Below are positions 1-63,682 of a stretch of 64,000 nt of DNA, piece by piece; the first letter of the stretch is position 1, and every line of letters begins with the position of its first letter. The stretch comes from Tetradesmus obliquus (Eukaryota > Chlorophyta > Chlorophyceae > Sphaeropleales > Scenedesmaceae), in contig CP126198.1 of the NCBI GenBank assembly GCA_030272155.1, positions 806,001-870,000 on the forward strand, written 5' to 3'. Position numbers and translations under genes: made by a program. The notes under the pieces are model-generated. The model ran no database searches. It saw only the letters and a list, made by a program, of their open reading frames with translations, and had not been told where the DNA came from.

Positions 1-1
1 A

Positions 2-8870
<8,869 letters not shown>

Positions 8871-36500: not shown

Positions 36501-37967
36501 TCCTGAAAGTGCTGCAGCCCAAAACTATATCATAACTCTCAACACGTGTCGATGACGCACCTTTCGAATGACGCCAGCCACTCATCATCGGGCTCATAGC
36601 CCAGCTGCCCCAGCTGCAGCGCCACCTCTTCCAAAGTGATGCTTAATTCAGAGTATTAACACGTTACTTCTGCCATAACACACCTTTCAAACAATGCCAG
36701 CCACTCGTCATCCGGCTCGTAGCCCAGCTGCCCCAGCTGCAGCGCCACCTCTTCAAAACGCTGCAGCCCCGAACAATTCAACGTGTTACTATTTGTCAGA
36801 ACGCACCTTTCAAACAATGCCAGCCACTCGTCATCCGGCTCGTAGCCCAGCTGCCCCAGCTGCAGCGCCACCTCTTTAAAACGCTGCGAACAATATAACA
36901 TGTTACTATTTGTCAGAACGCACCTTTCGAATGACGCCAGCCACTCGTCATCCGGCTCGTACCCCAGCTGCCCCAGCTGCAAAGCCACCTCCTCAAAGTG
37001 ATGCAGCCCCAAACCACTGTAACACGTTACTTCTGCCATGACGCACCTTTCGAATGACGCCAGCCACTCGTCATGCGGCTCGTACCCCAGCTGCCCCAGC
37101 TGCAAAGCCACCTCCTCAAAGTGCTGCAGCCCCTAACCACTGTAACACGTTACTTTTGCCATGACGCACCTTTCGAATGGCGCCAGCCACTCGTCATCCG
37201 GCTCGTACCCCAGCTGCCCCAGCTGCAAAGCCACCTCCTCAAAGTGCTGCAGCCCCGAACCACTGTAACACGTTACTTCTGCCATGACGCACCTTTCGAA
37301 TGACGCCAGCCACTCGTCATCCGGCTCGTACCCCAGCTGCCCCAGCTGCAAAGCCACCTCCTCAAAGTGCTGCAGCCCAAAACTGGCAAATCTTGCCCGC
37401 ACAGACTCTAATAAGCCGGCAAGCCCCTCTGGTCCCTCCACTGCTGCTGCTGCTGCTGCAGCCGCCGCTGCAGCAGCAGCAGCACTGCTGCTGCCGCCAG
37501 TCGCACGCAGGCTGGCCAGGCGCTTCAAGCTGTTTGTTAGAACTGCATTCGAATGCACCGACAGCTTGCTGGTGGAGACAGACAGCACAGCAGTCAGCCA
37601 GTCTGCGTCATCTGCACCTGCAGGTGATGATCGGCCACTACTAACATAAGCAGTTGAGTTGCTGCTTCTGTAGGGTGAGCTGCCTGCCAGCCTCGTGCTG
37701 CTGCTGCTGCCAGGCAAGCCAGCAGGACTGCTGTTTTCTTCAATGCTGCTCAGCGGGCTTTCAATGGTATCCAGGCTGAGTGTGGCAGTGCTGCTGCTGC
37801 TCACAGCATCCATGCTGCTGCTGTTTGACACTTTCAGCCACGACTGGCTGCTAGCACGGCGGACCTGGTAGCTGGGCCTGCTGCTGCTGCTGCTGCTGCT
37901 GCTATAGTAGCTCCAGCTACTGTTGCTGCTGCTGGAGTAGCGCTGCTGCTGCAGACCGCCTGCAGCA

Positions 37968-40335: not shown

Positions 40336-41174
40336 ATGGACCGGGCAGCAGCAGCAGCAGCAGCGGCAGCAACAGCAGCAGCAGGTTCACAGGCTGATGA
40401 TGAAGAGGTACCCAATTGTTGAGCATTCACTGGCATGTATCTGAGGTTCCCAGATACATGTACACGTGTTCTATCATCCACCTCGCTCTGCATCAGAAAC
40501 TCAAACGATGCTGCTGCTGAGCACAGCAGGCACGCAAACTGAGCTCAGCATGCAGTGCATAAGCAGCGCACCATCTCGCTGCACCGCGCTGCTGCTACCA
40601 TGTGTCTTGGCACTACACAAGCACACGGGGTGACAATCTGCCAACAAAACCATGTCATAACCTAGCAATGCACCTGAGCAATGCACACTACGCCAGACAG
40701 TGCTACAGTGCCTGCCTTGGCGTGTGCTGGTGCCTGCTTAGACAGGGGCTCTTGCACATATGCAATATGACGATACTGCATGCTGCTGTGTGCCTGACGC
40801 TACACTGCTGCTGTTCATGCAGCAGCAGCCCGAGGCTGAGCTGGAGTTCATTGGCTGCTCCGTAACCTTCACTTCTCCTGCTCCCGCTCCTGCACATGTG
40901 TGCTGTTGTGTGCCTGCCGCTACACTGCTGCTGTGCCTGTAGCAGCAGCCCGAGGCAGAGCTGGAGTTCATTGGCTGCTTCAAGACTGTTATCGTGGGCA
41001 TACGCTATTACACGGGGCGCGTGGGCGTGAACGAGGTGCGAAAAACGCAAGCAGTGGCGCATTTGAGAATCCTGCAACAGCTTGGGTGGCAGCAGCAGCA
41101 GCGGCACTAGCAGTCACACTGCGCTTTCAACATGCGGCCATGCACAGCCTTCTGTTTATGCACAGCAACGTGTG

Positions 41175-41250
<76 letters not shown>

Positions 41251-42916
41251 CAGATGGTTAAGTTTGTACGGGAGCCGCGCAACCCATACGACGCAAAGTG
41301 AGCAAGCCAACTACCACAGGCTGTGCACAGTTGGCATGTGGGGCAGCTGGCTCGGGGCACAGTGCAGCGCACACAGCAATGCCCTGTTGAGTGGCTGGCT
41401 TGTGCCTGCCAGGGAGTTCCGTTGACACTGGCGATTGGTTTCCTTCTGCTGCTTTCTTTCCGCTGCTGCTGCTGCTGCTGTCAGTGCTGTCAAGGTTGAA
41501 AACACCAATGGGGAGCAAGTGGGGCACCTGAAGAGGGAGCTGGTGTATGAGGTGGGTGGTGCAGCAGGCGGCAGCTGTCTGCTGTTTGGTGCTGACACAG
41601 AAACACATGGGGCTGCCTGCTGGCATTGTGCCAAGTGCACAGCATTGGAGCTCTCTCCTGCAAGGCACATGCCAGCTGGCTCAGCGTAACTACAGTTACG
41701 TAACCCTTCAAATACACGTGTTTGCAGCAACAGCAACCAAGAGCAACCAAAGGAAGCCGCTTGGCAGTCCCAAACGCAACCCTTGCTCTAAGAATATCAA
41801 ACGTTCTTACGCAGATTGCGTCCATGCTTGATGCTGACCAGCTGCGCATTGAAGGTGTGATGCCCGGCGGCAGCCGCTCCACCTTTACAATGCCGGTCAC
41901 AAGTGAGTGAGGCTTGCAGGAACGTGAGTCTGGCTTGCAGGAAAGAGACAGGTACCTGGGCAGGCCTGCAGAGAACATCTGGCCACACCAGCCAAATTGC
42001 AGGAACTAGCACTGCAAAACAGCCTGCAGATCTTGTAGAGACAGAACACCTGTGTGTTCACCAGCGCGACAACTGTTGCACTGCAATATACACTTGCCGT
42101 GCGCCTTAGGGGTTGCATGACCATTCCGTGCAACACTTGTTGGCCGAACACAGCGTGCAATCACACGTGTGCGTCATACTTGATGCTGCACGCACTCACT
42201 CCTGTGTACCTGCAATTCACAGATCCAACGTGTCTTTCCCTGCTTGCCCTGCAGTCTACTGCTTCGTCAGCAGCACTGACGTGGGAGTGGCATTGCGCCG
42301 CAAGGTGGCCTCCCTAGGCCTCCAGTTCACTGCGATGAGCCTGCAGGAAGCTGCAGCAGCAGCAGCAGCAGGCCACGGCAGCGGCGGCCGCGGCGGCCGC
42401 GGCAGCAGCAGCGGTGGCAGGGGTGGTGGTGCTGCGGCGGCTGGTCCTCAGGTGTACTTGGCGCCAGCTCAGCTTGAGAACAGCCTCAACCGGCTGTTTG
42501 AAGGTGCGCACGCATGCGCTGCTGTTTCACCTGTTCACCCGCATGCGCTGCTGTTTCACCTGCTGGTAGTGTGGGCCAGCTGTGCGACCTGTTTTGTGTT
42601 AGTGGTTGGAGCGTCTCCAGCTCCTTACGTACCGCTGCCTGGGTCGCTGACAACCACTTGCTTGTTTACAACAACCAGATCATATGTTTAGTGAAGATGT
42701 ACTGGCACTCTAAGAACGCCTGGGGGTGGCAGTACCACTGATGCAGTACTGATGCAGCACTGATGACATTGCTCCATCAGCAAATCAGTACTGTATACGT
42801 ATCAGTAATACTGATATAGCACGTATGCACCACTAATCGAGGCCTAGTGTCCGTGGTGCATCAGTACTGCATACGCGTCATCCGCGTGAAACTAGCTATG
42901 CGCTGCTTCAATGAGG

Positions 42917-42952
<36 letters not shown>

Positions 42953-43657
42953 CTGCACACGCAGCGGCCACTGCTAGACCCACGTGTCACGTCCACCCAC
43001 CATTACCTCTGCTGCTTCCCCCACAGATCTGTACGGCAGCGCTGCAGCCCCGTCCTGCATGGACCCCAGCAATGCCGCGCTGTCGCAGCTGTTATAACGC
43101 CAACTAACACCTCACCAACACACACCTTGCCTTTCTGTGTGCGTGTGTCCGTACAGATCTGTACAGCAGCGCTGCATCGCGGCCCCGCATGGGTGCAAGC
43201 GATGAGGTGCTGTCGCAGCTCTTTCCCCACCAGCAGGAGGCACTGGCTTGGATGGTCAACAGAGAGAACAGCAATGCCCTGCCGCCATTCTGGAGCGCAG
43301 CAGCGCCAGCAGGGCGTGGGGCTGCTGCTGCTGGTGGTGGCGTGGTGTACACAAACACACTCACCAACTTTGAGACTTCAACGCGCCCAGAACCGCTCAG
43401 GTGAGGATGATGCTGCCTTTCTTGTTGCTTCTTCTGCTGATAGCGTGTTGATTGCAAGCATAACTATAGGCTGCCTGCAACGCACACATACATGCTGGCT
43501 GATGCCATGGTGCCGGGCGAATCTTGCAAACATCTGTCTGCATGCAAAGCAGTTTGTTTGCTGCTGCTGCTGCTGCTGCAGGGGTGGCATCCTGGCTGAC
43601 GACATGGGCTTGGGCAAGACACTGATGTTCATCGCCCTGCCAAACAAACCTGCGACG

Positions 43658-43689
<32 letters not shown>

Positions 43690-46600
43690 ACCATTGCTGC
43701 TGCTGCTGCTGCTTTGCCACTTTTTCTTTGAATGTAGGGGTGGCATCCTGGCTGACGACATGGGCCTGGGCAAGACGCTGATGGTCATCGCCCTCATTGC
43801 CACCAACGCACCAGGGGCACAGGTGCGGCATGGTTATGCACCTGCCTGTATGCACAACTGCTTGATATGTAAAACACATTGTACATGATGCCAACCATTG
43901 TAAAAGGGTGGCAGTGGGCATGCAAGTCTCCAGGCAAGATTACAATGCAAACAATATGATAAACAACTGCAATAGGATGCGGTTTCCAAGTGTAGCCTTG
44001 CCGTGCTGCTGCTTGTTGTTTGGTTTGCAGCTGCCGCCGCTGGTGCAGGTGGCGGTTGAAGCTGCTGCTGCAGAGGCACCGGAGGAGCCTGAGAAAGGCA
44101 GGCCCAAAAAGCGACAGAAAAAGGTGACACATGTTACCTACATTGTAATGTTTCAATACAGGTGACGCGCAACATATCTCAAAAGCACAAAGCGCATTTG
44201 AGGATTTGGTGCTTGTATGCAGTGTTGATGCAACGTACCTCAGGTTCTGCTGTCTGCAGTGTGCCTGCTAGATCTGTCACCTTTGCACCATTCGGCTGAT
44301 GTGGGCTGACTATCAATCGCCTGCAAGCACTTGCGCATCGCTTTACACCAAGACGTGTCACCCAGCTGGCTGATTAGCAGCAGCAGCGTTTCATCTGCAG
44401 CTGCGACTCGCCTGAAGCCTCCCTCAAACCTACCCACATGCTAAACATACTCGTATGCCCCAACCCATACCTTCTGCTGCAGACACCTAACACCAGCAGT
44501 GCCAGCCAGCTGCAGGCAGCAGCCAAGCGCAAGTCAGATGCTGATGTGGCTGCAGCAGCAGCAGCTGCTGGTGCTGCTGGCTCCAGCCCTCCTGCAGCAG
44601 ATGGGCCCCGTGGCACGCTGATTGTGTGCCCGCTGAGTGTGCTGAGCAACTGGCAGATGCAGCTGGAAGAGCATACTGCTGGCAACCTGCAGGTAGATTG
44701 ATGAGTTGGAAACCTCCGCTAGCATTGCAGCGTGTATCTGATAAAACCTTAGTCTATAGCTAGGGCTGTCTCAATCAATAATGCACGTTACCCGCTGTCC
44801 TGGACTTGTGGGAGTAGCTCTCTGCGTTGAACTTAATCAAACTTGAGAACCTGCAGGTGCTTGTGTCAGGTTGAGAGAGTATCAAATATACTACCTTACT
44901 GCTTAACCAAGCTGATTTGAAAGCAGGCGCTGGCTGCGCTACAAGATGCATAACGGTGCAGCATGGAAGTCTTTGAGGTGCTGGTCAAGGCCTCACAAGA
45001 CTGCAGGGTGTTGCGGTCAACACACCCGGCCGTTTTGCAACATTTTGTTATGTTCAGATCCTTTGTTCTGTCATGCTGCAACCAGGTGGCGGTCTACCAC
45101 GGCCCGGAGCGCAACCGCAGCAGGGCCTGGCTGGCGCAGCAGGACGTTGTCATAACAACATATGCCACACTGGCGGGCGATGTGGGCCTGCGTGGCGGCG
45201 GCGGCTTGTTTGGCCAGCAGTGGCTGCGGGTGGTGCTGGATGAGGCACACACCATACGCAACGCAGACACGCAGCAAGCCAAGGTAAGTGAGGCTTTCTT
45301 TGGCTTTACTGCTTGGAGGTTTGGGGTTCTGAGTGAGCAAGCTGCTTGCACTCCAGGTGTGTGTCAGGGCCAGGTTGTGCCGTCTTTACACCAACTTATG
45401 CAACCATGGCAGTGGGAATGGCCCTGTTATAGCGGCAGTGGTGGTGGCGGCAGCCTGTTTGGTCAGCAGTGGCTGCGGGTGGTGCTGGTTGAGGCACACA
45501 CCATACGCAACGCAGACACACAGCAGGCCAAGGTAGGGCTTTCAATGGTGTCTTGGTTGAATGGGTTGTTGGTTGGGGTCCTGCCCGTGAGCTGCTTGCA
45601 CTTAAATTGCGTGTAAGGGCCTGATTGTGCATTCATGTTTATCATGCTGGCGGGCGATGTGGGCCTGAGGGGCGGCGGCGGGCTGCTTGGCCGGGCGTGG
45701 CTGCGGGTGGTGCTGAGGCGCACACCATACGCAACGCTGAGACGCAGCAAGCCAAGGTAGGGCTTTGGTCACCGTATTGCTTGGTATTTACTGCACCCAC
45801 CCCCGGAGCGGTTCAGGGTCGAATCTAGTGTGGTTGTAAGGACTTTTGCCACGCTGGCGGGCGATGTGGGCCTGAGGGGTGGCGGCGGCTTGTTTGGCCA
45901 GCAGTGGCTGCGGGTGGTGCTGCATGAGGCGCACACCATACGCAACGCTGAGACGCAGCAAGCCAAGGTAGGGCTTTGGTCACCGTATTGCTTGGTATTT
46001 ACTGCACCCACCCCCGGAGCGGTTCAGGGTCGAATCTAGTGTGGTTGTAAGGACTTTTGCCACGCTGGCGGGCGATGTGGGCCTGAGGGGTGGCGGCGGC
46101 TTGTTTGGCCAGCAGTGGCTGCGGGTGGTGCTGCATGAGGCGCACACCATACGCAACGCTGAGACGCAGCAAGCCAAGGTAGGGCTTTGGTCACCGTATT
46201 GCTTGGTATTTACTGCACCCACCCCCGGAGCGGTTCAGGGTCGAATCTAGGGTCGTTGTAAGGACTTTTGCCACGCTGGCGGGCGATGTGGGCCTGAGGG
46301 GTGGCGGCGGCTTGTTTGGCCAGCAGTGGCTGCGGGTGGTGCTGCATGAGGCGCACACCATACGCAACGCTGAGACGCAGCAGGCCAAGGTATGTGAGAC
46401 TTCATTGGGTGTTCTTTTTGTGTATTGGTTGGGGTTTGAGGCTCTGAGCGCAAGCTGCTTGCACTTCAAGTGTGTTTCAGGGACTGCTTGTGCAGTCATT
46501 ATGCCATGGCCAACTCATGCCACGCTGGTAGGCCATGTAGTCCTGTTACAGCAGCAGTGGTGGCAGCGGCTTGTTACGACAGGTGTGGCTGCGGGTGGTG

Positions 46601-49600
46601 CTGGATGAGGCGCACACCATACGCAACGCAGACACACAACAAGCCAAGGTAAGGCTGGTCTAGTACAACACGCTGCGCTGGTGTAGACTTTGCAAAAAGT
46701 GCATGTGTGAGTGATCTGTGAGGATTTCAGGCCACCGGCAGGCGGCACGGAGTCTTTAAAGAGGGCTGAACATGCAGGCTCTTTTCTCGCTAACCCTCCC
46801 ATCCATGGGTCTCAAGCATCTTTGTGTATCGCTGCACACACATTGCAGGAGTGCAGCGCGCTGAAGGCGCAGCGGCGCTGGGCGGTCACCGGCACGCCGC
46901 TGCAGAACCGCATCGGGGACGTGTTTGGGCTGCTGGCGTTTCTGGCGCTGCAGCCGCTGGATGACCCTACCTTTTTGCGCCAACCAAACCAGACTGCCGG
47001 CAACTCACTCGTTCTCTTCCGACTTTGCATTTTTTCGTTGTGTGGCTGTATGTGTCACTTCTCAACAGGCCTGCCGGGCGCTCAAGGCGCAGCGCCGCTG
47101 GGCAGTCACAGGCACTCCGCTGCAGAACCGCATCGGGGACATGTTCGGGCTGCTGGCCTTCCTTGGCTTGAAGCCGCTGGATGACAAGGCCTTCTGGCGG
47201 CGCTGTGTGGAGCGGCCACTGCGGCAGCGGGACAGCCGCACGCTGCTGACACTCAAGGTGGGAGGTTTTGCTTTTAGGGTTTTGCTGCAGGGTTTGAGGG
47301 TAGTACAGCAGCAGCAGTTGCCGCAGGCTTTCAGGGCTTTGGGGGTTTAGTGTGCTGTGTGAGGGGTTCAAGCCACTGACCTTCCTGAGGATTAAGCCGC
47401 TGGATGACAAGGCGTTCTGGAGGCGCTGCGTGGAGCGGCCGCTGCGTCAGCGCGACAGCAGGTCCCTGCTGACATTGAAGGTGGGAGGCTTTGCTTTGGG
47501 GTTTTGCTGTAGGGTTTGAGGGTGGCCCTGCTGCGGCAGTTGCCGCAGGCTTTCAAGGCTTTGGGGATGTCAAGGGTGGTGTTTGGGTGTTTTGGGCTGC
47601 TGCCGTTGCTGGGGTGGAAGCCGCTGGACTTCACAGGCGTTTTGGCGGCGCTGCGTGGAGCGGCTGCTGCGACAGAGGGACAGCCGGGCACTGCTGACAC
47701 TCAAGGTGTGGTGCGTGCCACACAGTAGTGCTTTCAGACAAGATGGGACAAAATGCAGGAATTTGCATGCCTGCATGGTTTTGGCTGGATGCTGACGCGT
47801 AGCCTTGCCACTTTTTCGCGATGGTGTACACAATTTCCCTTTGTTTCCTTCCTGGTGTCGCTGCCGCCCAAGACGGTCACGTCCTCAGCAACCCCCGCCC
47901 ACCACCCCTCCCCTTCACCCTTGATTTGGCTAATCTCATGTTGTCTCCTTGTGCATTCACTTCGATTGCAGGTGGGGATGATGGGCAGCCTGGCGCTGCG
48001 CCGCACAAAAGCTTCTTCGGGGCCTGACGGCCAGCCGCTGGTGGCTGCTGATATGCACCCAGATGGTCATGTTACGAGCACCCCTGCCCAGAATCCCTTC
48101 CCTCTACAACTACTTGGTATTTCATGACTGGTTTATCCATTTCACTTGCAGGTGCTCATGGGCAGTCTAGCGCTGCGCCGCACCAAGGACAGCCCAGGGC
48201 CTGATGGCCAGCCGCTGGTGGCGCTGCCGCCCATGGGGTCATGCCTCAGCAGCCCCTGCCCACCACCCCTTTCCCTCACCATTGCTTTGGCTATGTCACG
48301 TTCTTCCCTTGTGCATTCACTTCCATTGCAGGTGTTGATGGGCAGCCTGGCGCTGCGCCGCACAAAAGATTCTCCAGGCCCTGATGGGCAGCCGCTAGTG
48401 GCGCTGCCGCCCAAGACGGTGACGGTGGTGCGGCTAGAGCTGGGGGCGGAAGACGCGCTCAACTACGCGCGCCTTGAAAGTGAAACGAAAAGCCTGGTGA
48501 GCGTGCTGCATGCTTGAATCAGCTGTGCAGGGAAGAGTGGTCATCACATCTGTGGCGGCGTGCGTTTGTGTCGAACCCACCCTTGGGACGCGCAAATTTG
48601 CACACCGTGCGCCTGCTTTGTGACGATGACGGGTCGGTGACAGTGACGGTGACAGTCACGGTGGTGCGGCTGGAGCTGGGGGCAGCAGATGCTCTGAACT
48701 ATGTTCGCCATGAAAGCGAGACGGAAAGCCTGGTGAGAAGATTTGAAACATACATGCACTGCTTGCCACACAGACAGTGCATATGGCACGCGCCGCACTG
48801 CAGTGTGTTGATCTTTGGCTGCTGCTGTTGCTGCTGCTGCTGCCGCTGCTGTTGCTGCTGGCGCTGCATCAGGTGGCACACCACCTGTCCCGGGGCACGC
48901 TTGTTGCGAATTACACCAACGTGCTCACCATCATCATGCGCCTGCGCCAGGTGCGCGCCCGCAGCTGTTGACTTCTCCATTTGTTGCTGAAGAGCTGCAT
49001 GTTCTGCATGTTGTGCGCTTTTGTGCGGTGTCGTACGGCAGCCATGAAACAGACACATAAGCATGCATCTGCCGTCGTCACAGCTGGGTCACTTGGATAA
49101 CGAGCGGCTTCAACAAACCTATGTGGCTGTGGTGCAAACATGTGCTGTGTTATAACACATAATTATGCAGGGGTTGCAGGCCAAATCAGCTGTCGTCTGC
49201 TGCTGTGGTCACATCAGTTGCATATCTTGGTGCTGCAGCTGCTCCTCCAATCATCCTTTACGTGCGTGCTCACTATGTCACTTTGCAGGTGTGTGACAGC
49301 AGCCAGCTGTGCCCTCAGGCGCTAGAGGCACTGCGTGCAGCAACAGCAGCAGCCAAGGCAGGCGCAGCAGGCAAGGCTGCGCCACCCCCACCGGAACTGC
49401 TGGCCAAGCTGCTGGCTGCAGTGGCGGGTGAGGGCGGCTGTGAGGGTGCGAACTTTGTTGCTTGCTTGACCAACTTAAAAAGAGGCAGTGTTGTGCTGGC
49501 AGCTGCCGGCTGCAGTGGCAGGTGCGGCTGGAGTAGCATGCAGTGTAAAGATGGACAGTCTAGCATGAAAAATGCAAAGCTGCGCACCTTCAAGATTGCT

Positions 49601-52600
49601 TGCCCAGGAGACCTCCCGCCCAAGGTCCCCCGGCGCTCCAAGTGGGCTGTCCACGCAAGCACTGCTGTCCAGCATCATGGCATCATAGCATCATGCGAAG
49701 TTCTCACCTGTAGGCACAGAGAAGGTTACAGGGCAGGGTCGTTAGGGGTCCATGGGCGGGACCACCTGTGACCCCTGCCCCCGGCCTTCAAGTAGTCTTG
49801 GGTAGACTGCGGTGCAGGTCCCAGTCATGACACTCGCAGATCAGCCACAACAGCAGGAGAAACAACATATTCGTAAAAATTTAACACAAATAATGTGCAT
49901 GGGAGTCACTGCATGCAAGTAGCAGTGACCGGACCTAGATTGCAATCACAGTAGATGGTCACCATGTCCCTGCAAGGTACACAGACACTGGTGCTCCCCA
50001 TGACAGACACGTCATATGCACATTTGAACCATTGCGCACGTATATCCATGTCAGAAGACCGTGTAGGGTGCAGTGGCACCAGCACAGCAGTGGGAATCGC
50101 TGTTGACAACAATATGCATAGCAAGATGGTGTAGTACCTCGCCATGTGTTTCCAGGCGCTTCTCAGCGCAGTGCAGAGATGCCGAAAAATACGCAATACA
50201 GCGGTAGGAAATGACCACAAGCAACACCTTGCACAAAGACGTTGGCCGTGGGCTGCCTGCTGCTGCTGCTGCTGCTGCTGCTGCCATCTGCATAGTGTGT
50301 TGAGTTTCCAGGCTTGACATCTTCTGCACTTCATTGATTGTGCTGGTTAAACTGCTGTCTGCAGTGATAGGTAAGGCCGACTATGCTGCGTGTCTGATAG
50401 TGAACCTGGCTACCTTTGTACAGCAAATGCTATGTGATACCATGCATCTTGTAGTCTGTCATTGAAGGACTGGTCAGCAACTTGACAACTGCAGGCAACA
50501 AACGCAGCTGCTGCAGTTGTTACCGCCACTGCTGCGCTCACTGCTGCAACTGCTGCTGCCCCCGCTGCAGGTGATGACAGCGAGGAGTGTGCCATCTGCC
50601 TCAGCCCACTGGAGCTGCCATGCATCACATCATGCAGCCACGTGTACTGCAGGAGGTGCGGTGTATGGTTGCGTTTGGGCAGAGCACTGCAGCTAATGCC
50701 CTGCATGATGATGGTAACGCACGGGTGCTGTGCATGCACGTTCCCTGCCAGGCAACATGTGCTGCTTGCCGCCGCCTGTTATGCGTGATGACTCTTTCGC
50801 TTACTGACAGATGCTGGGATGATTGCTGCTTTGTATCACCAGGTGCATTGAGAGCGTCATCGTGCGCGACAAGCCGGCCTGCCCGCTGTGCCGCAAGCCC
50901 ATCTCAGCTGACAGCCTCATCGACCCACCGCCAGCAGCAGCAGCAGGAGAGGGCAAAGAGTCTGCTGCAGATGAGCAGGTAAAAACACGGCTACATGCTC
51001 TGCAAGCTTCCGTGCGGCAGCAGCAGCTGCTGATGGCAACGAGGCTGCAGCAGATGAGCAGGTACCGCAGCGGCTTCTTGCTCTGCGTGCGTGCATGCTG
51101 TCTCCATATGCAATGCAAGGTAGAAGCAGCAGATGAAGACAGGCTGCTGCAGATGAGCAGGTGATAAAGTGCAGCCATGAAGTCAACATCACCTGCCATG
51201 CCTTGATGCCTTTCACGCCGCATAACTCTGGACTTGCACTTCCTGTGCCTGCACAGGCACCTCATTCGTCCTCCCAGGGCACGGCAGCAGCAGCAGCAGC
51301 AGCAGTAGCAGCAGCGGGCAGCAGCAAGATCCAGGCGCTGCTGGCTAAGCCGCGGGAGGTGCAGCAGGAGGAGCAGCAGGTGGGGGCTGGCGGCTACAAA
51401 GCAGCAAACTGCCTTGCATTCTCGATATGAACGTGGCTGTGTGCAGCAGGAGGAGCAGCAGGTGGGGTTGGCGGCTGTCTGGGACACACAAACATCAAAT
51501 AATGTGACAGCAGGGTTCGTTGGCATGTATGCGGGAGGTGCAGCAGGAGGAGCAGCAGGTGCGTGGTAGCAGCACATCTATGGACAGCGTCAAGACTATT
51601 TTTTTATGTTTGTTGCGGTGCATGGTGCCTTGTGCCTTCGCTCACATATTAACAGCTGCGGCTGCTGCTGACGCTTATGCTTTTTGTCCTATCTATGCCC
51701 CAGCTCTTTTTATACAAACAGGCATAGCGGTGTGGATCAACCTGCTCCTTACGCAGTCACTGCTGCACGATCTTGCCTTTATCCAAACAAAGCGAACGCT
51801 ATTGCTGCTTGACAGTGAGAGAACCAACACTTAAAGTATCTTGCGTGCCCCTGGTGCAGGCTGCTGCAGCTGCAGCAGTGTCTGCCGCAGCCGCCCCTGC
51901 TGCCATCAAGTCAGTCGTGTTCAGCCAGTTCACAGGTGCGCAGCAGGTAGTTGTTTTCACTGTGCAGAATTCAGAGTCCGCACTTCACAGTTGTGTTCAG
52001 CCGTTGCACAGGTGCACGCTCATCTTACCCTCCAAAAAGTACAACACGGATGGCGTCTCTATGCTTCCCTCAATCATCATGCTGCTTGGCTTGCGTCCAG
52101 CGTCCTCAAACAACATGTCACAGCACTCGATGCCCAAAGTGCTACCCAGCTGTGTCACCTTCCTGATATGGATTCTGTCTGCTGCTGCTGCTGCTGCTGC
52201 TGTGCCAGGCATGCTGGACCTGATTGCTGGCGCCCTTGCGGCTGAGAACATCCCTTTTGTGCGCGTTGACGGCAAGAGCAGCGCCAAGGCGCGCAAGGAA
52301 GCCATTCAGGCCTTCGCAGGTATGCCATAAGTGTAAGCACAACTCATGTAGGTGTGCAGTTGCCTTTGGCCCTTTGATGGCAACAGCAGCGCCAAAGCGC
52401 GCAAGGAAGCCATTCAGGCCTTTGCAGGTATGACATACGTTGTGAGCACCAATCATTCAGGTGCACAGTTGCCTTTGGCTGTCTGTGCGCGTTGATGGCA
52501 AGAGCAGCGCCAAGGCGCGCAAGGAAGCCATTCAGGCCTGCGCAGGTATGCCATAAGTGTAAGCACATTCCATTTTCGTGCATAGTTGCCTTTGGCCTTT

Positions 52601-54247
52601 TGATGGCAAGAGCAGCGCCAACGCGCGCAAGGAAGCCATTCAGGCATCTGCAGGTATGACATGAGTTGTTAGCACAATCCATATGAGGCGCAGAGTTGCC
52701 TTTGGCTGTCTGTGCGTGTTGATGGCGAGAGCAGCGCCAAGGCGCGCAAGGAAGCTATTCCAGCCTTCGCAGGAGGGTCAGATCAGCAGGATCAGCGGGC
52801 ACAGGTAGTGCTATGCGCCGGCCACCATCAAAGCGCACCGACATGCCGATAAGTTACCACTGCGATCTGGGTCAAACCAGCTGCACACTGAAACTTCGGT
52901 CTACCGCTGCTTGCTGCTTGCTGCTGCCCCGGCTGCTTTTTGCCGCTGCTGCTGCTGCCGCAGGAGGTGGGCAGGCTGTCCCCGGGTGTTCCTGGCCAGC
53001 TGCAAAGCTGCCAGGCAGGGCACCAACCTGACTGCTGCTTGCTGCTGCTGCTGCTGCCGCTGCTGCCCCTGCAGGCAATGCTGAGGGCTGCCCGCGTGTG
53101 TATCTGGCCAGCTTGAAAGCAGCGGGCCAGGGCATCAACCTAACTGCTGCTTGCTGCTGTCACTTGCTGTCACTTGCTGCGGCTTGCTGCTGCTGCTGCT
53201 GCTGCAGGCAGCGGTGAGGGGTCTCCACGCGTGTTTCTGGCCAGCCTGAAAGCAGCTGGCCAGGGCACCAACCTGACTGCAGGCAGCCATGTGCACATGA
53301 TGGACCCCTGGTGGAACCCTGCGGTTGAAGACCAGGCCATGGTGAGAATGCAGTGTGAGGTTTGGGTTGCCGCTGTGCACAGCATATCTTGGTGCAGCGG
53401 GTGTTGTGCTTCACATGATGGACCTATGGAAGAACCCTGCGGTTGAAGACCAGGCCATGGTGAGGGTTAAGAATTTACGTTTCAGATCAAGCATTGACAT
53501 AGGCAGGGATCATCTTGTAGGGGATGAGGAGGTGCACATGATAACCCCTGGTGGAACCCTGCGCCTTAAGAGCACGCCATGGTGAGGGCTTCTTGTGTTG
53601 CTTTTGTGTTAGGCAGGGTTGATGTGCGTGGCTAGGGTGGAGGCAGCCCTATGCACATGATGGACCCTTGGTAGAACCCCGCGGTTGAAGGTGAGGCCAT
53701 GGTGAGGGTGGGTTGAATGTTGGACCCGCACCCAGTGGTGACGTTATTTCTGGGTGTGTGTGTGTGTGTGGCGAGGCCGCGAGGCGCGGCGCTGTGAGGC
53801 ACATGACGGACCCCTGGCGGCACCTCGCAGTGCAAGACCAGGCCATGGTGAGGGCGGATGCATTGATTTCAGCCCGTTGCCGGAATCATTGAAAGCATTG
53901 AAGACAATCATTTCAGGATGACGTTGCCTGGCGCATGATGGGCCCATCCCCTTTTACAAGCCTGTTGTGAACGACCAGGCCATGGCGAAGGATTTCTGCC
54001 GGCACCCATAATGTGATCATTGCATACTGGTCATTGCTTGCGCCGTAGAGTGCTATGTTGAGGGTACGCCTGTTTCTGCGGGCGATCAGGCTGGTGCAGC
54101 CTGATCAGGTGCAGCCTGATCAGGTGCAGCCTGATCAGGTGCAGCCTGATCAGGTGCAGCCTGATCAGGTGCAGCCTGATCAGGTGCCGCCAGCCTCTGT
54201 GCTTGTCTATGATTGATGCCTTTACAGGGTGTTCACTTCCATTGCCA

Positions 54248-54311
<64 letters not shown>

Positions 54312-55578
54312 CCGTGTGCACCGGCTGGGCCAGACACGTGCCGTGCAGGTGTGGCGCTACGTGGCGCTGGGCACCATCGAGGAGCGCATGCTGGAGCTGC
54401 AGGTATGATGGACTGTACGGGTTGAGCTGGAACAATAGGTTTGTTGGTTTTCTGGTGTACTAAGGTTTTGTACTTCTTCAGTATGTAGGCTTACATCAGT
54501 GGTTCAGCTTAGTGTTTTGGCGTTCACGTGTTTGGGGCTGTACGGGTTGAGCTGGAACAGGGGCTACGTGGCGCTGGGCACCATCGAGGAGCGCATGCTG
54601 GAGCTGCAGGTGTGATGGGGTTGTGGCTTGCTTGTGTGCTGGGGTGTAGGGGTTTGGCAGTCACGGGTGTGGCGCTACGTGGCGCTGGGCACCATCGCGG
54701 AGCGCATGCTGGAGCTGCAGGTGCGGGGTTTGAAAGGTGGAGGTTTTGGGTTTGCCAGTGCACTGGTGTAGATGCGTTGGCAGCACACTGGGGTTCAGTG
54801 GTAATGCCTCCAGATGTGTGGGGCTACGTGGCGCTTGGCACCATCGAGGAGCGCATGCTGGAGCTGCAGGTGCACTGGTTTGCCAGTACACTCAGGTGCA
54901 TTGCCTGTCCTGAGTACTGGCGTTTCAACCTCTTGCCAGTGCACTGGGGTTACATATATGGGTTGCACGGGTGTGGCGCTACGTGGCACTCGGCACCATT
55001 GAGGAGCGCATGCTGGAGCTGCAGGTGTGAGGTTGAAGTGGAAGTGCTGGGTTTGCCAGTGCACTGTGTGAATGCTTTGGTGGCTATGCTCTCAAGTGTG
55101 TGGCGCGACGTGGCGCTGGGCACCATCGAGGAGCGCATGCTGGAGCTGCAGGTGTGATGGGGTTGTGGCTTGCCAGTGTGCTGGGGTGTAGGGGTTTGGC
55201 AGTCACGGGTGTGGCGCCAGGTGGCTCTGGGCACCATCGAAGAGCGCATGCTGGAGCTGCAGGTGTGGGTTGTACAGACAGAAGTTCTGGGATTGCTACA
55301 GCACTGGTGTCACCCGTGCGTTGGCAGCGCACTGGGGTGCAGTGGTAATGCCTCCAAAATTGTGTGGCGCTACGTGGGCACCATTGAAAAGCGCAGGCGT
55401 CACCATGCGTCACTGGGGGAGACTGCTGCTGTAGCGTATCAGCCAACCCAATGTATCAGGTACATAAATGTGGGAGGCTGCTTGTTCAACTCACTTGAGA
55501 ATGCCAGCAATGCAACAAATTGACTCAATCACCATGTTTGCCAAGTGCTCACAGCAGCGGCCGTCCCTCACTGTCGCG

Positions 55579-55631
<53 letters not shown>

Positions 55632-55819
55632 AGGACGCAAAAGCCCAGCTGGCCAAGGCAGCCTGGATGGAGCAGCAGCAGCCAGCAGGCAGTGCAGGTG
55701 CAGGCAGCAGCGCAGCAGCAGCAGCGGCAGCAGGCGGTCACAGAGCAGCAGGAGCAGCTGGTGGCAGCGGCGGGTTGGGCATCCGTGCAGATGACCTGCG
55801 AAGGCTGATGGAGCTGTGA
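40336..55819 (+). CDS. HLTF: HLTF/RAD5-like SNF2 helicase with HIRAN and RING domains
   Basis: DNA-dependent ATPase and probable E3 ubiquitin ligase acting on PCNA and stalled forks in the nucleus. Exons: 40336-40407, 40943-41035, 41254-41297, 41485-41551, 41728-41902, 42255-42503, 43157-43400, 43738-43822, 44031-44123, 44483-44692, 45086-45283, 47069-47257, 48332-48496, 48873-48950, 49289-49427, 50571-50655, 50843-50978, 51257-51379, 51860-51935, 52209-52319, 53208-53341, 54310-54402, 55634-55819. All phases agree; 1014 residues, close to the animal protein. Domains in order: HIRAN ([32 protein letters not shown]), Walker [21 protein letters not shown] nuclear signal, [17 protein letters not shown] box [31 protein letters not shown] ([26 protein letters not shown]), [42 protein letters not shown]. 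Nearly every large intron contains partial copies of adjacent exon edges. Confidence 0.9.
40815..40862 (+). repeat. Acceptor-side copy of the HIRAN exon head
   Basis: A copy of the exon start at 40943 ([12 protein letters not shown]), preceded by CAG, ends in sequence that loses the frame. A shared TGTGCCTGCCGCTACACTGC block lies before both copies, so intron and exon were duplicated together. Confidence 0.75.
41176..41247 (+). repeat. (CTG)24 tract at an intron 3' end
   Basis: Twenty-four perfect CTG units end six bases before the acceptor at 41253 of the second HIRAN exon. It is the longest trinucleotide run in the window. Confidence 0.95.
42741..42872. mobile_element. Short foldback element candidate
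   Basis: A perfect 16-base inverted repeat, ATGCAGTACTGATGCA at 42741-42756 and its complement at 42857-42872, encloses about 100 bases with further CAGTACTG and CAGTAATACTG motifs. It lies in a helicase intron. Size and ends fit a MITE-like or simple foldback sequence; target-site duplications are not clear. Confidence 0.4.
42919..42951. repeat. (CAG)11 microsatellite
   Basis: Eleven perfect CAG units in the helicase intron before the exon at 43157, just after the foldback candidate. Confidence 0.9.
43027..43105 (+). repeat. Acceptor-side copy of exon 43157 head
   Basis: After a CACAG acceptor the exon head DLYGSAA is followed by a diverged copy reaching a stop after LSQLL. The intact copy ([20 protein letters not shown]) follows at 43157 after a GTACAG acceptor, with the phase needed by the preceding exon. 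Confidence 0.75.
43582..43690 (+). repeat. Acceptor-side copy of the Walker A exon
   Basis: A near-perfect copy of [15 protein letters not shown] follows a (CTG)n-CAG acceptor, but it then reads [13 protein letters not shown] and runs into a CTG tract without the normal ending. The intact exon is the second copy at 43738-43822. Confidence 0.85.
45420..46650 (+). repeat. Six donor-side copies of the DEAH-box exon
   Basis: Downstream of the intact exon 45086-45283, its 3' half ([20 protein letters not shown] through TQQAK and donor) recurs ending at about 45533, 45757, 45968, 46179, 46390 and 46650. The third to fifth of these belong to a nearly identical array with a 211-base period. The aspartate of the DEAH box is kept only in the last copy; copy one has Val, copy two is out of frame, copies three to five have His. 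None has an obvious acceptor. Confidence 0.9.
46849..46975 (+). repeat. Acceptor-side copy of the TGTPLQN exon
   Basis: [20 protein letters not shown] to [11 protein letters not shown], after a TTGCAG acceptor, is a well-preserved first copy of the exon at 47069 ([20 protein letters not shown]). It lacks the [15 protein letters not shown] end and a donor, so the second copy is taken as the real exon. Confidence 0.8.
47380..47710 (+). repeat. Two donor-side copies of the exon ending at 47257
   Basis: [20 protein letters not shown] through the LTLK-GTGGGAGG donor is repeated at about 47395-47480. A second, frame-shifted copy lies at about 47615-47705. Both are downstream of the intact donor at 47258. 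Confidence 0.8.
47972..48240 (+). repeat. Two acceptor-side copies of the LRRTK exon head
   Basis: [20 protein letters not shown] at about 47972 and [20 protein letters not shown] at about 48152 precede the intact exon at 48332. Each follows an intron end resembling CATTCACTTCCATTGCAG. Spacing is about 180 bases. Confidence 0.85.
48640..48735 (+). repeat. Donor-side copy of exon 48332-48496
   Basis: [20 protein letters not shown] through ESLGTGAG repeats the exon end ([18 protein letters not shown]) downstream of the true donor. A short GTGACGGTGACAGTCACGG stutter lies at its left edge. Confidence 0.8.
51440..51562 (+). repeat. Donor-side copies of the QQEEQQ exon end
   Basis: GCAGCAGGAGGAGCAGCAGG followed by TG occurs at the true exon end (51379) and again near 51445 and 51538. 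This is the same donor-side pattern in a low-complexity setting. Confidence 0.6.
52372..52772 (+). repeat. Four donor-side copies of the [12 protein letters not shown] exon end
   Basis: The end of exon 52209-52319 ([17 protein letters not shown] and a GTATGC donor) is repeated four times with ends at about 52427, 52545, 52652 and 52770, period about 110 bases. Most copies keep CAGGTATG donors; the last loses the donor. Confidence 0.85.
52958..53145 (+). repeat. Two acceptor-side copies of the motif V exon head
   Basis: Copies of the exon head at 53208 ([18 protein letters not shown] type) occur at about 52960-53030 and 53068-53145, each after a (CTG)n/GCAG intron end. Only the third copy runs on to [11 protein letters not shown]. 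Confidence 0.8.
53405..53990 (+). repeat. Donor-side copies of the MMDPWWNP exon end
   Basis: The end of exon 53208-53341 (CACATGATGGACCCCTGGTG to GCCATG and GTGAG donor) recurs with increasing decay, ending at about 53460, 53582, 53701, 53848 and 53985. The first copy reads [17 protein letters not shown]; later ones lose the frame. Confidence 0.8.
54096..54185. repeat. 15-base minisatellite, six units
   Basis: Six perfect units of GCAGCCTGATCAGGT, each with the palindrome TGATCA, in the helicase intron before the exon at 54310. Confidence 0.95.
54249..54305 (+). repeat. (CTG)19 tract at an intron 3' end
   Basis: Nineteen CTG units end just before the CCAG acceptor at 54309 of the motif VI exon. 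Confidence 0.95.
54555..55400 (+). repeat. Seven donor-side copies of the motif VI exon end
   Basis: The end of exon 54310-54402 ([17 protein letters not shown] and a GTATG/GTGTG donor) recurs ending at about 54609, 54720, 54870, 55024, 55152, 55260 and, degraded, 55395. Most copies encode [15 protein letters not shown] or [16 protein letters not shown] without change. Interspersed intron pieces such as TTTGCCAGTGCACTG are repeated too. Confidence 0.9.
55580..55630 (+). repeat. (CTG)17 tract at an intron 3' end
   Basis: Seventeen CTG units run directly into the CAG acceptor of the last helicase exon at 55634. Confidence 0.95.
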
Positions 55820-61426: not shown

Positions 61427-63682
61427 ATGGCTGCCACAGGCCCCATCAACGATCTGATAGCGCCCAAAGCCTCAGCAACAGAGAAGGCATATGATGCAGG
61501 GCACAACCTGCCATCCAGCTCTGCGCGCTACAGCCCTGACAACCTGCCAGCTGGAGTGGCACGCATTGTCACTGGAGCACGCAGGCTGTGTGAGGTGGGC
61601 ATGAATCAGCATACTATAACAAGAGCGTGAAAAGCACACAGCACTGGTTGAGGTGTGCAATTCAGCAGTGATGCGTGCGTTGGGTCCCTGCCACATGCAT
61701 TGATACAGCCACAACAACAGCCACATATCGGTGCCTGCGCTGCAGCCTGCAGCAAACGACTCTACTGCTCCTGATCACCGCACTTGATGCTTGACACAAA
61801 GTAAGGCATCAAGTCAGCTTGACTGTGAACGTTTTCATGTCCACTCTATGTGGATTGAACAGGCATGTACACTGTTTGGTCAACAGCCGCTGCTGCTGCT
61901 GCTGCTGCCGCTGCTGCAAGTGCGCACCATGCAGGAGCACGTGCACCTCATGAACTTACTGGCGCATTCATGACCCGTACCATGCCGTTGCTGTTGCCTC
62001 CACTGCTGCTGCTGCTGCCACTGCAGGTGCGCACCATGCAGGAGCACGTTGAATTGATGAACAACCTGCTGGCGCGTGACGTGACCTGTAACATGCCTTT
62101 GATGCTGGCTTCACTGCTGCTGCTGCTGCTGCCGCAGGTTCGCACCATGCAGGAGCACGTCCATCTCATGAACAGCCTGCTGGCGCGTGAAGTGACCCGC
62201 ACCATGCCGCTGCTGCTGCTGCTGCTGCTGCTGCTGCAGGTGCGCACCATGCAGGAGCACGTTGACTTGATGAACAACCTGCTGGCGCGTGATGTGACCT
62301 GCACCATGCCGCTGCTGCTGCCTCTACTCCGCTGCCGCTGCTGCCACACTGCAGGTTCGTACCAAGCAGGAGCAGGTCGACTTGATGAGCAGCCTGCTGA
62401 TGCGTGCATGACCCACATCATGCCGCTGCTGCTGCTGTTGCTACTGCCGCTGCTGCTGCTGCTGCTGCCGCAGGTTCGCACCATGCAGGAGCATGTGGAC
62501 CTAATGAACAGCCTGCTGGCGCGGGACGTGACTTGGGATGCGCCGCCCATCCTGATCAGCAGCAGGGAGGACATGCGTGTGGCGGTGTACCTGGCAAAAT
62601 CCATTGCAATGCTTACCCTGGAGCCAGCGCTGGTTTCTGTAAGTAGCTGTCACTGTTGTATATACTTCTGGTGTGTTTGTTTGGATATGCGAATGGCTGT
62701 GTACCTGGCAAAGTCAATCGCAACACTCACGCTGGAGTCGGCGCTGGTCTCAGTGAGTAACATGATCAAGTGACATTTGCGCACCGCAGTAAGACGTCTC
62801 TGGATATAACATGAGAGATTTGGTGCTCAAGGGTGTGCAGTGTGTTTTACGGTGCTCACTCTCCTTTTCTGGTCTCAGGCCTGTGTTCAACCCGTTGTGG
62901 CTGGTGCCAGGACCCACATGTAACTATCCTCTCTCATAATGGTTGCTGTTGCGTGTGTTGATGCATGCGTGCGGCTGTGTACCTGCCCAAGGCGATTGCA
63001 ACACTCACGCTGGAGCCGGCGCTGGTATCGGTGAGTAACCTGTCACTTCATGTTGTGTTCCTTGTGGTTGGATGTGGTTGGATGTGTGTGTGGCTGTGTA
63101 CCTGACAATATCATAATTAGTCGCAACACTTACGCTGGAGCTGGCGCCGGCCTCCATTTTACTGTGGCAATTGTTGTGTATAGTTCTGTTCGGTGTGTTT
63201 GGATATGCGTGCGGCTGTGTACCTGGCCAGGTTCATCACAACACTTACACTGGAGGCGGCGCTGGTGTCTGTGAGTGACTGTTCCATGACTGTTATGCAG
63301 TGCTTGAATATGCGTGCGGCTGTGTACCTGGCCAAGTCGATTGCAACACTTACGCTGCCGCCGGGCAGGTGTCCTTGACTAACATGTTGTAACTGTTACA
63401 TGACTGTTATGCAGTGCTTGGGCAGGCAAGTGGCTGTGTACCTGACAGAGGCGACTGCAACACTCAAACTGGATTATGCCCCACTATCTGTTGTATATGG
63501 TGACTTTTGCCTTGCAGGTTCAGCCGCTGGGCAACAGCCGCACCATCATCGACATCGAAGGCACTGCCTATGTGGCCCCCAAGCGCAGCTGGCTGGTGCC
63601 GCTGAGCCTGCTGCTGCCGGTCAGCATCGGCATCCGCGCCACCATCCGGCTGGGAGTGAGGGGGCCCTTGGACACGGGCAGG
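61427..63682 (+). CDS. Unrecognised protein, 3' partial
   Basis: Three exons join in phase 0: 61427-61594 (MAATGPINDLIAPKASATEK to GARRLCE), 62474-62638 (VRTMQEHVDLMNSLLARDVT to TLEPALVS) and 63518-63682 (VQPLGNSRTIIDIEGTAYVA to RLGVRGPLDTGR). That is 166 residues, and the last donor at 63683 implies more exons beyond the window. The start Met is preceded by GCAACT and begins a frame with good local codon use. There is no signal peptide; the third exon has a hydrophobic stretch (WLVPLSLLLPVSIGI). I recognise no family. The exon at 62474 is flanked by acceptor-side copies of its first half and donor-side copies of its second half. Confidence 0.55.
61890..62472 (+). repeat. Five acceptor-side copies of the RTMQEHV exon head
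   Basis: Upstream of the intact exon at 62474 the segment (CTG)n-CAG plus VRTMQEHVDLMNSLLAR recurs at about 61918, 62029, 62139, 62240 and 62355, period about 100-120 bases. Each copy carries its own CTG-rich intron end; the first and fifth are damaged (for example CAAG instead of CAGG). Coding similarity stops at the same point near MTRTMP/DVTCTMP. Confidence 0.9.
62670..63480 (+). repeat. Six donor-side copies of the YLAKSIATLTLEPA exon end
   Basis: Downstream of the donor at 62639 the exon end (DMRVAVYLAKSIAMLTLEPA to LVS and a GTRAGT donor) recurs ending at about 62753, 63030, 63155, 63270, 63368 and 63480. Copies one to four keep the GGCGCTGGT end, several with GTGAGT donors. None has an acceptor. 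Confidence 0.85.

What the first reader, a model, noticed from the sequence alone, without database searches (positions are those of the whole stretch)
40336..55819. Exon-edge stutter: junction-spanning tandem copies throughout one helicase gene
Seen directly: the HLTF-like gene has partial copies of at least eleven of its exon edges. Copies that contain an acceptor always lie upstream of the intact exon; copies that contain a donor always lie downstream. One copy of each exon, with phases agreeing at every junction, gives 1014 residues, close to the known family length. The same rule holds in the cellulase, prolyl 4-hydroxylase, SET, OPR and 61427 genes. Inference: tandem duplication of units that span a splice junction is frequent in this genome and is tolerated because the extra exon edge becomes intron. 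I know of the AGGT-duplication model for intron gain, but not of a genome where exon edges stutter at this density.
Basis: partly seen in the sequence, partly recalled or inferred. Interest (0 to 1): 0.92.

Follow-up and report, generated by a model that had tools for sequence, protein, structure and literature searches.

The report
Half-exon copies stuttered inside introns
In this green alga, many introns of some genes carry extra copies of the neighbouring exon's edge, complete with a good-looking splice site; they look like repeated local duplications that lengthen introns without changing the protein, and half of them resemble the live exon only up to the splice site, which simple duplication does not explain.

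Summary
The window is Tetradesmus obliquus (or nearly so): GenBank protein OEZ86_014100 maps exactly onto the gene as 23 exons, 985 residues (not 1014). Sixteen of its 44 splice junctions have intronic copies. In four modelled genes (three identical to a GenBank protein) I count 52 copies in 24 families; all 40 donor-bearing copies lie downstream, all 12 acceptor-bearing copies upstream. That rule largely follows from tandem-duplication geometry. Density varies: 16/44, 7/16, 1/34, 0/8 junctions. Introns with copies average 710 nt, others 279.

Plain duplication and neutral decay do not fit everything. In 31 of 52 copies alignable similarity to the live locus stops within 10 nt past the junction, though exonic parts are about 89% identical; simulated decay gives about 1%. 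Divergence follows codons (positions .080/.063/.193; omega 0.26, family bootstrap 0.18-0.39). GT matches at 79/80 positions, AG at 24/24. One family (exon 11) shows recombination.

Best reading: recurrent tandem duplication of half exons, passed over in splicing because a half exon is not recognised as an exon, then sequence exchange. The last two steps are inferred; no RNA data. New variant of a known kind.

The parts
40336..55816 (+). HLTF/RAD5-like gene (SNF2, RING, helicase C domains), 23 exons, 985 aa, identical to GenBank OEZ86_014100
   Evidence: spliced alignment exact; Pfam PF00176, PF00271, PF00097 on a 712-aa part; HIRAN PF08797 precomputed for P0001
40781..40859 (+). upstream copy of exon 2 acceptor edge (live exon 40943-41035)
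   Evidence: 92% over 79 nt
43023..43093 (+). upstream copy of exon 7 acceptor edge (live 43157-43400), flank not similar
   Evidence: 79%, extends 4 nt into the intron
43577..43638 (+). upstream copy of exon 8 acceptor edge (live 43738-43822)
   Evidence: 94%, extends 5 nt
45441..46653 (+). six downstream copies of exon 11 donor edge (live 45086-45283), incl. a 211-nt array; site patterns show recombination
   Evidence: four-gamete tests
46846..46965 (+). upstream copy of exon 12 acceptor edge (live 47069-47257); pS .46, pN .05
   Evidence: 85% over 120 nt
47376..47708 (+). two downstream copies of exon 12 donor edge
47912..48233 (+). two upstream copies of exon 13 acceptor edge (live 48332-48496); flank similar, plain tandem units of about 180 nt
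48651..48737 (+). downstream copy of exon 13 donor edge; pS .51, pN .07
49494..49527 (+). downstream copy of exon 15 donor edge (weaker second hit at 50341-50385)
51017..51162 (+). two downstream copies of exon 17 donor edge (live 50843-50978)
51441..51561 (+). two downstream copies of exon 18 donor edge (live 51257-51379); the second failed the complexity filter and is not among the 52
51988..52015 (+). short downstream copy of exon 19 donor edge (weak)
   Evidence: 86% over 28 nt
52365..52773 (+). four downstream copies of exon 20 donor edge (live 52209-52319); the last has GA in place of GT
52908..53147 (+). two upstream copies of exon 21 acceptor edge (live 53208-53341)
53412..53852 (+). 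four downstream copies of exon 21 donor edge, alignment ends at +5 in each
54560..55267 (+). six downstream copies of exon 22 donor edge (live 54310-54402), aligned part 92-98% identical, alignment ends at +2 to +9; a seventh, truncated, at 55362-55398 is not among the 52
   Evidence: in the own genome found only here apart from one 35-nt match on C7
3538..3695 (+). upstream copies of sequence at a cellulase exon acceptor edge (live 3787-3973 by homologue P0129; start 3746 by P0131)
61880..62445 (+). about five upstream acceptor-edge copies in the 61427 gene, last unit runs on into the exon
   Evidence: sequence read by eye

Best explanation
Segments of about 75-250 nt that cross one splice junction are duplicated in tandem again and again in some genes of this alga. 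A donor-crossing duplication leaves the live exon first and the spare half exon downstream; an acceptor-crossing one leaves the live exon last. The spare edge has a good splice site but is only half an exon (no partner site at exon distance), so a spliceosome that recognises exons as units passes over it, and it ends up inside a longer intron. Duplications that add a whole exon would be spliced in and are mostly lost. Afterwards the exonic part of the spare copies recombines (gene conversion or unequal exchange) with other copies and with the live edge; this keeps exonic part and splice site alike while the intron flanks, which lack an anchor, drift apart, and it exposes copies with bad codons or lost splice sites to selection. 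Shown: positions, exactness of the gene model, splice-site retention, exon-limited similarity, codon-periodic divergence, recombination within one family (exon 11), association with long introns. Inferred: exon definition, exchange with the live edge in particular, exposure by exchange as the cause of the codon pattern, and that mRNA skips the copies.
For: Exact 23-exon model with one copy of each edge. 52 of 52 copies on the predicted side; inverted matches to exon-touching sequence only 3, all at E 7e-4. Two tested pieces are local, not dispersed. Copy splice sites score near live ones: donor median 8.6 versus 9.6 (slightly weaker, P .03), acceptor 10.1 versus 9.0; other intronic GT -1.1, AG 1.3. 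No alignment with both junctions in the four genes, where the placement null expects 15% of junction-touching units (about P = 0.02 for 24 families, my arithmetic). Alignment ends within 10 nt of the junction in 31 of 52; simulated decay at 25% intron divergence gives about 1%. Omega 0.26, 95% interval 0.18-0.39 over 24 families, below the about 0.5 expected for one live and one dead copy in one genome. Exon 11: 23 of 36 informative site pairs incompatible with a single tree, reached in 0 of 2000 and 1 of 4000 simulations without recombination; without the most divergent copy 7 of 21, reached in 34 of 4000. Introns with copies longer, P about 1e-6, Spearman 0.72.
Against: No RNA data: that mRNA skips every copy rests on gene models. 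Recombination is shown for only 1 of the 6 families with at least three copies; the other five have 0-2 informative sites each (one incompatible pair of one in exon 21 donor). In exon 11 the copies alone already show it (14 of 21 pairs; 5 of 15 without the divergent copy), so exchange with the live exon is not shown separately. At 4 sites where the live exon carries a residue differing from both other strains, 5 of 6 copy readings carry the other strains' residue and none the live one's, so the live exon has not refreshed those copies since the strains split. In exon 11, copies c1 and c3-c5 have lost the DEAH-box aspartate and c2 has a deletion there (sequences); 10 of 52 copies have frame-breaking indels and 3 stop codons occur, so any selection is weak. 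Changes seen in a single copy (48 synonymous, 74 non-synonymous) imply only partial constraint. 5 of the 31 junction-limited copies do have significant flank similarity in a gapped test. The lack of separate intron-only repeats (0 found) could partly be detection bias. A whole-exon array with both sites exists at 36.3-37.4 kb on the - strand, outside the modelled genes.
Confidence: 0.4

Rival explanations
1. Plain tandem duplication across a junction followed by neutral decay of the spare copy; nothing else.
For: Fits side rule, direct orientation, spacing and the 12 of 52 copies with at least 50 nt of intron similarity, e.g. exon 13 acceptor units where exonic and intronic identity are about equal.
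Against: 31 of 52 copies end at the junction against about 1% simulated; codon-periodic divergence with omega 0.26; GT matches at 79 of 80 positions.
Confidence: 0.2
2. The copies are used: alternative donors or acceptors, regulated retention or part-time exons, so selection keeps codons and splice sites.
For: Low omega in some copies (exon 12 acceptor 14 synonymous to 4 non-synonymous; exon 13 donor 11 to 4); splice-site scores near those of live sites.
Against: Distances to the live donor are not consistently multiples of three (my arithmetic on coordinates); frame-breaking indels in 10 of 52; catalytic aspartate lost in most exon 11 copies; the HLTF proteins of three strains contain no such copies, though the UTEX 393 model repeats a stretch matching exons 9-10 (only P0001 was aligned to DNA).
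Confidence: 0.14
3. Unequal crossover between strongly diverged alleles or strains brought in edges that had been live in another genome, so they arrive already diverged at synonymous and intron sites but not at protein and splice sites.
For: Would explain junction-limited similarity, low omega and kept GT together. Copies carry residues of other strains at 5 of 6 such readings; the UTEX 393 protein has NAEG at the exon 21 start, as in the copy at 53075, against SGEG in the live exon here (for the strains; sequence for the copy).
Against: Needs synonymous divergence around 0.15 or more between recombining alleles (my estimate); not measured here. Arrays with six copies need many such events. 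The residue pattern is equally expected if copies are simply older than the strain split.
Confidence: 0.16
4. Exon pieces with their splice site were inserted into introns by templated repair or from RNA copies.
For: Similarity restricted to exon plus splice site in 31 of 52.
Against: Random insertion would not put 52 of 52 on the tandem side nor nearly always in direct orientation; GT plus up to 10 intron bases are included, so spliced mRNA is not the template; spacers of the exon 22 array are partly related to each other.
Confidence: 0.05
5. Assembly artefact.
For: None found.
Against: Most copies differ from the live exon, by up to about 25%; the Scenedesmus NREL 46B-D3 protein P0004 holds what looks like a read-through exon 14 edge copy ([10 protein letters not shown] twice) in another assembly.
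Confidence: 0.02

Closest known systems
Intron gain by tandem genomic duplication (AGGT / proto-splice-site model); PMC3443670 and PMC2891723 passages seen, PMC4974935 listing and abstract start only
   Same: Tandem duplication of coding sequence with a splice-like site; one copy becomes intron; the coding sequence is kept
   Different: Here the duplicated segment already crosses an existing junction; existing introns grow instead of new ones appearing; several copies per junction; no live donor and acceptor pair was seen to lie in two copies of one segment
Tandem exon duplication / mutually exclusive exons (recalled)
   Same: Local exon copies, synonymous-biased divergence
   Different: Copies here hold one junction only (0 of 52 both), so they cannot act as replacement exons
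Introners (PMC9860276, search listing and abstract start only)
   Same: Intronic sequence with splice sites in repeated copies
   Different: The two pieces searched are local to one gene and derive from its own exon
Intronic minisatellites / tandem repeats
   Same: Head-to-tail units, variable copy number
   Different: In half of the copies only the exonic half of the unit is recognisable against the live locus; it ends at the splice site
Pseudogene-templated gene conversion / concerted evolution (recalled)
   Same: Dead copies exchange sequence with the live gene
   Different: Here the dead copies are half exons in the live gene's own introns, and exchange with the live edge is inferred

Membership tests
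Intron gain by tandem genomic duplication | duplicated exonic segment | tested here: met
   52 copies include 21-138 nt of exon
Intron gain by tandem genomic duplication | acting donor and acceptor lie in two copies of the same segment (AGGT) | tested here: not met
   in the listed hits no copy of an upstream exon end coincides with a live acceptor, nor a copy of a downstream exon start with a live donor (read from the lists, older faded cases would be missed)
Intron gain by tandem genomic duplication | intron position new relative to relatives | not testable with these tools
   only proteins of relatives were available
Mutually exclusive exons | whole exon with both splice sites duplicated | tested here: not met
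   no alignment spans both junctions in the four modelled genes; one unmodelled - strand array does hold both sites
Introners | near-identical copies dispersed over many genes | tested here: not met
   a 601-nt exon 11 array piece and the exon 22 edge match only their own gene, apart from one 35-nt match (counts are lower bounds; the other families were not searched genome-wide)
Ordinary tandem repeat array | whole unit, exon part and spacer, similar between copies | tested here: inconclusive
   met in 12 of 52 (at least 50 nt of flank), not in 26 of 52 with no detectable flank similarity to the live locus
Gene conversion with a live copy | mosaic sites incompatible with one tree, live copy involved | tested here: inconclusive
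   exon 11 family recombinant (23 of 36 pairs), also without the live exon (14 of 21); five other families lack informative sites

The most novel reading that the evidence does not exclude
Spare half exons inside introns are not dead: through continued exchange with the live exon edge (or part-time use) they evolve under protein-level and splice-site constraint, so the introns of this alga carry a standing reserve of interchangeable exon edges, and intron growth is driven by splice junctions themselves.
Probability: 0.28. Interest if true: 0.85.

Novelty: new variant of a known kind. Interest (0 to 1): 0.62.

Why it matters
[quoted passage not shown] T. obliquus introns average 462 bp against 230-302 in four comparison algae (PMC5966456, passages seen). 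Junction-crossing duplication is a concrete candidate: 19 of 51 introns, those with copies, hold 13.5 of 22.4 kb of intron. The arrays are also natural splicing experiments: up to seven donors of similar strength must resolve to the outermost pair, which tests exon definition in a genome with short exons. If the copies really exchange with live exons, they would be an unusual case of selection acting on intronic half exons. They may also mislead gene predictors: the NREL 46B-D3 model looks as if it had read through one.

Tried and rejected
Mini-exon idea: exon 22 copies begin near an internal CAG|GT, but most other donor copies show no acceptor at their 5' start, so the copies are not complete exons. 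Frame-preserving alternative donors: distances are not consistently multiples of three. Annotation-free test by AG|GT at repeat ends: clear in the window (20 right, 3 left of 108), weak in C5 (12 right, 8 left of 74), absent in C1 (3 and 1 of 78), and the reverse-strand counterpart is not enriched (12 right, 11 left of 260); used only as support. Comparison of exonic and intronic divergence between spare copies (.104 versus .280) was down-weighted because permissive scoring can force unrelated spacers together; for a clear in-array duplication the contrast is smaller (.07 versus .14 for 54560/55102). Retention of GT is only partly independent, because an alignment must reach the junction to be classified; the one extra junction checked by extrapolation (P0125 exon 8) also keeps GT. 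Splitting families by pS to find 'old' and 'young' copies was dropped as circular. Splice scores for live sites were computed on the sites that trained the matrix, which favours them slightly.

Rows dropped before counting the 52: exon 9 and exon 19 acceptor hits (CTG runs), hits failing the low-complexity filter (including 51531-51561), one P0125 exon 5 hit under 25 nt, hits not reaching a junction (47852-47881, 55362-55398, one at P0125 exon 8), and hits further than 2500 nt.

Literature: nine searches of the open library listed no title that describes junction-limited half-exon arrays; I saw titles, abstract starts and passages of four papers only. Subscription papers, e.g. the internal gene duplication work of Gao and Lynch (recalled), could not be read.
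Full report
WHAT IT IS. The window lies in a 104.7-Mb genome of 17 contigs. The best protein match to the gene at 40.3-55.8 kb is GenBank OEZ86_014100 of Tetradesmus obliquus (P0001); it maps to the + strand as 23 GT-AG exons and the spliced translation is identical over all 985 residues. Domains are SNF2, RING and helicase C (Pfam on a 712-aa part), with HIRAN listed for P0001: an HLTF/RAD5-like helicase. The organism name rests on this identity.

CHECKING THE OBSERVATION. Every exon with 60-80 nt of flank was compared with its gene. After the filters told under Tried and rejected, four modelled genes give 52 intronic copies in 24 junction families: HLTF, P0122 and P0125 (both on C5), each identical to a GenBank protein, and a kinase on C1 modelled with another strain's protein, P0121, with five gap operations. 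Junctions with at least one copy: HLTF 16 of 44, P0125 7 of 16, P0121 1 of 34, P0122 0 of 8. All 40 donor copies lie downstream, all 12 acceptor copies upstream. The three extra genes came out of a chimeric query, so this is a convenience sample.

HOW MUCH OF THE RULE IS GEOMETRY. A tandem duplication crossing one junction must leave the live edge first (donor) or last (acceptor). Placing units of the observed lengths (76-249 nt) at random on these genes, with introns drawn from the copy-free ones, gives 12% exon-only, 32% intron-only, 48% one junction, 8.5% more than one. So junction-crossing itself is expected; what needs selection is the scarcity of exon-only and whole-exon copies. No alignment in the four genes spans both junctions of an exon. 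The side rule does argue against random insertion, as do the near absence of inverted copies (3 weak matches) and the local confinement of the two pieces searched genome-wide.

WHAT DOES NOT FIT PLAIN DUPLICATION. (a) Extent: alignment to the live locus ends within 10 nt of the junction in 31 of 52 copies, at 50 nt or more in 12 (flank window 80 nt). In a simulation with 10% exonic and 25% intronic divergence plus indels about 1% end within 10 nt and 89-96% run at least 50; even 40% intron divergence gives only 26-32% within 10 nt. Yet exonic synonymous divergence is .236 in the junction-limited and .272 in the long class, and 26 of 52 copies in 15 of 24 families have no detectable flank similarity; 5 of the 31 junction-limited ones do have some. 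(b) Codons: divergence by codon position is .080.063.193; the non-synonymous to synonymous ratio, calibrated on the intron substitution spectrum, is 0.26 (0.18-0.39 by bootstrap over families; 0.1% of replicates reach 0.5). If one lineage is live and the other dead at all times, about 0.5 is the floor (argument, not a tool result). Changes seen in one copy only are 48 synonymous and 74 non-synonymous, those seen in the live exon only 14 and 4. (c) Splice sites: GT matches at 79 of 80 positions, AG at 24 of 24; copy sites score near live sites (donors slightly lower, P .03) and far above other intronic GT or AG. (d) Recombination: among seven exon 11 sequences 23 of 36 informative site pairs are incompatible with one tree, reached in 0 of 2000 and 1 of 4000 simulations without recombination. 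Without the divergent copy c2 it is 7 of 21 (34 of 4000), and among the copies alone 14 of 21 (2 of 4000), so the live exon's part in the exchange is not separately shown.

AGE. At the four residues where the live exon differs from both other strains, five of six copy readings carry the strains' residue, so these copies are older than the strain split or came from another allele. UTEX 393 (P0002) begins exon 21 with NAEG like the copy at 53075, while the live exon here has SGEG. P0004 of Scenedesmus NREL 46B-D3 contains [10 protein letters not shown] twice around a short insert at exon 14, which looks like an edge copy read through in another species; exon 14 has no copy here.

CONSEQUENCE. 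Introns with copies average 710 nt against 279 without (19 and 32 introns; P about 1e-6; Spearman 0.72) and hold 13.5 of 22.4 kb. T. obliquus introns average 462 bp versus 230-302 in R. subcapitata, M. neglectum, C. zofingiensis and C. reinhardtii (PMC5966456 table).

MECHANISM. Correct splicing here needs the outermost pair, first donor and last acceptor, among sites of similar strength. A machine that pairs the nearest sites would fail; one that recognises exons as acceptor-exon-donor units would pass over half exons and include whole-exon copies. The UTEX 393 protein, which repeats about 100 residues corresponding to exons 9-10, would agree with inclusion of whole exons, though an assembly duplication is possible there. 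I infer exon definition as the filter. For the exon-limited similarity and codon pattern I favour exchange between spare and live edges; allelic crossover and part-time use remain open, and none is proved. Against exchange with the live exon: none of its strain-specific residues is found in the copies read, and copies c1-c5 of exon 11 have lost the DEAH-box aspartate or carry a deletion there.

LIMITS. Four genes, 24 families, one genome, no RNA, no second-strain DNA. Copies within an array are related, so family-level figures should be preferred. Density is uneven: local direct repeats per 10 kb were 3.9 in 200 kb of C1, 14.8 in 50 kb of C5 and 16.9 in the window.

VERDICT. A real habit of half-exon duplication inside introns, uneven between genes and probably shared with a related alga; a new variant of tandem-duplication intron evolution, with an unexplained exon-limited similarity that makes it worth a genome-wide and RNA-level study.

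Noticed in passing
window 36290-37400 (- strand): Array of about eight 123-nt units, each a whole exon of about 77 nt with both acceptor (GGGCTGCAG) and donor (AAAG|GTGCG) and an intron of about 46 nt, as read by eye: a both-junction array, unlike the half-exon copies.
   Followed up: partly
window 1-8900: Two tandem GH9 cellulase genes (about 80% identical DNA in aligned parts), the second followed by a long alanine/proline-rich open frame.
   Followed up: partly
   Followed up: no
   Followed up: no
window 41176-41248, 54249-54306, 55580-55631: Long CTG runs directly before live acceptors (HLTF exons 3, 22, 23), perhaps serving as the pyrimidine-containing tract.
   Followed up: no
P0002 (UTEX 393 protein): A stretch of about 100 residues matching exons 9-10 is repeated: whole-exon duplication in that strain or an assembly duplication; its C-terminus differs from the other strains, perhaps a fusion with a neighbouring gene.
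   Followed up: no
L005-L024 versus L025-L029 and window: Local repeat density differs about fourfold between stretches of the same genome (3.9, 14.8 and 16.9 per 10 kb).
   Followed up: partly
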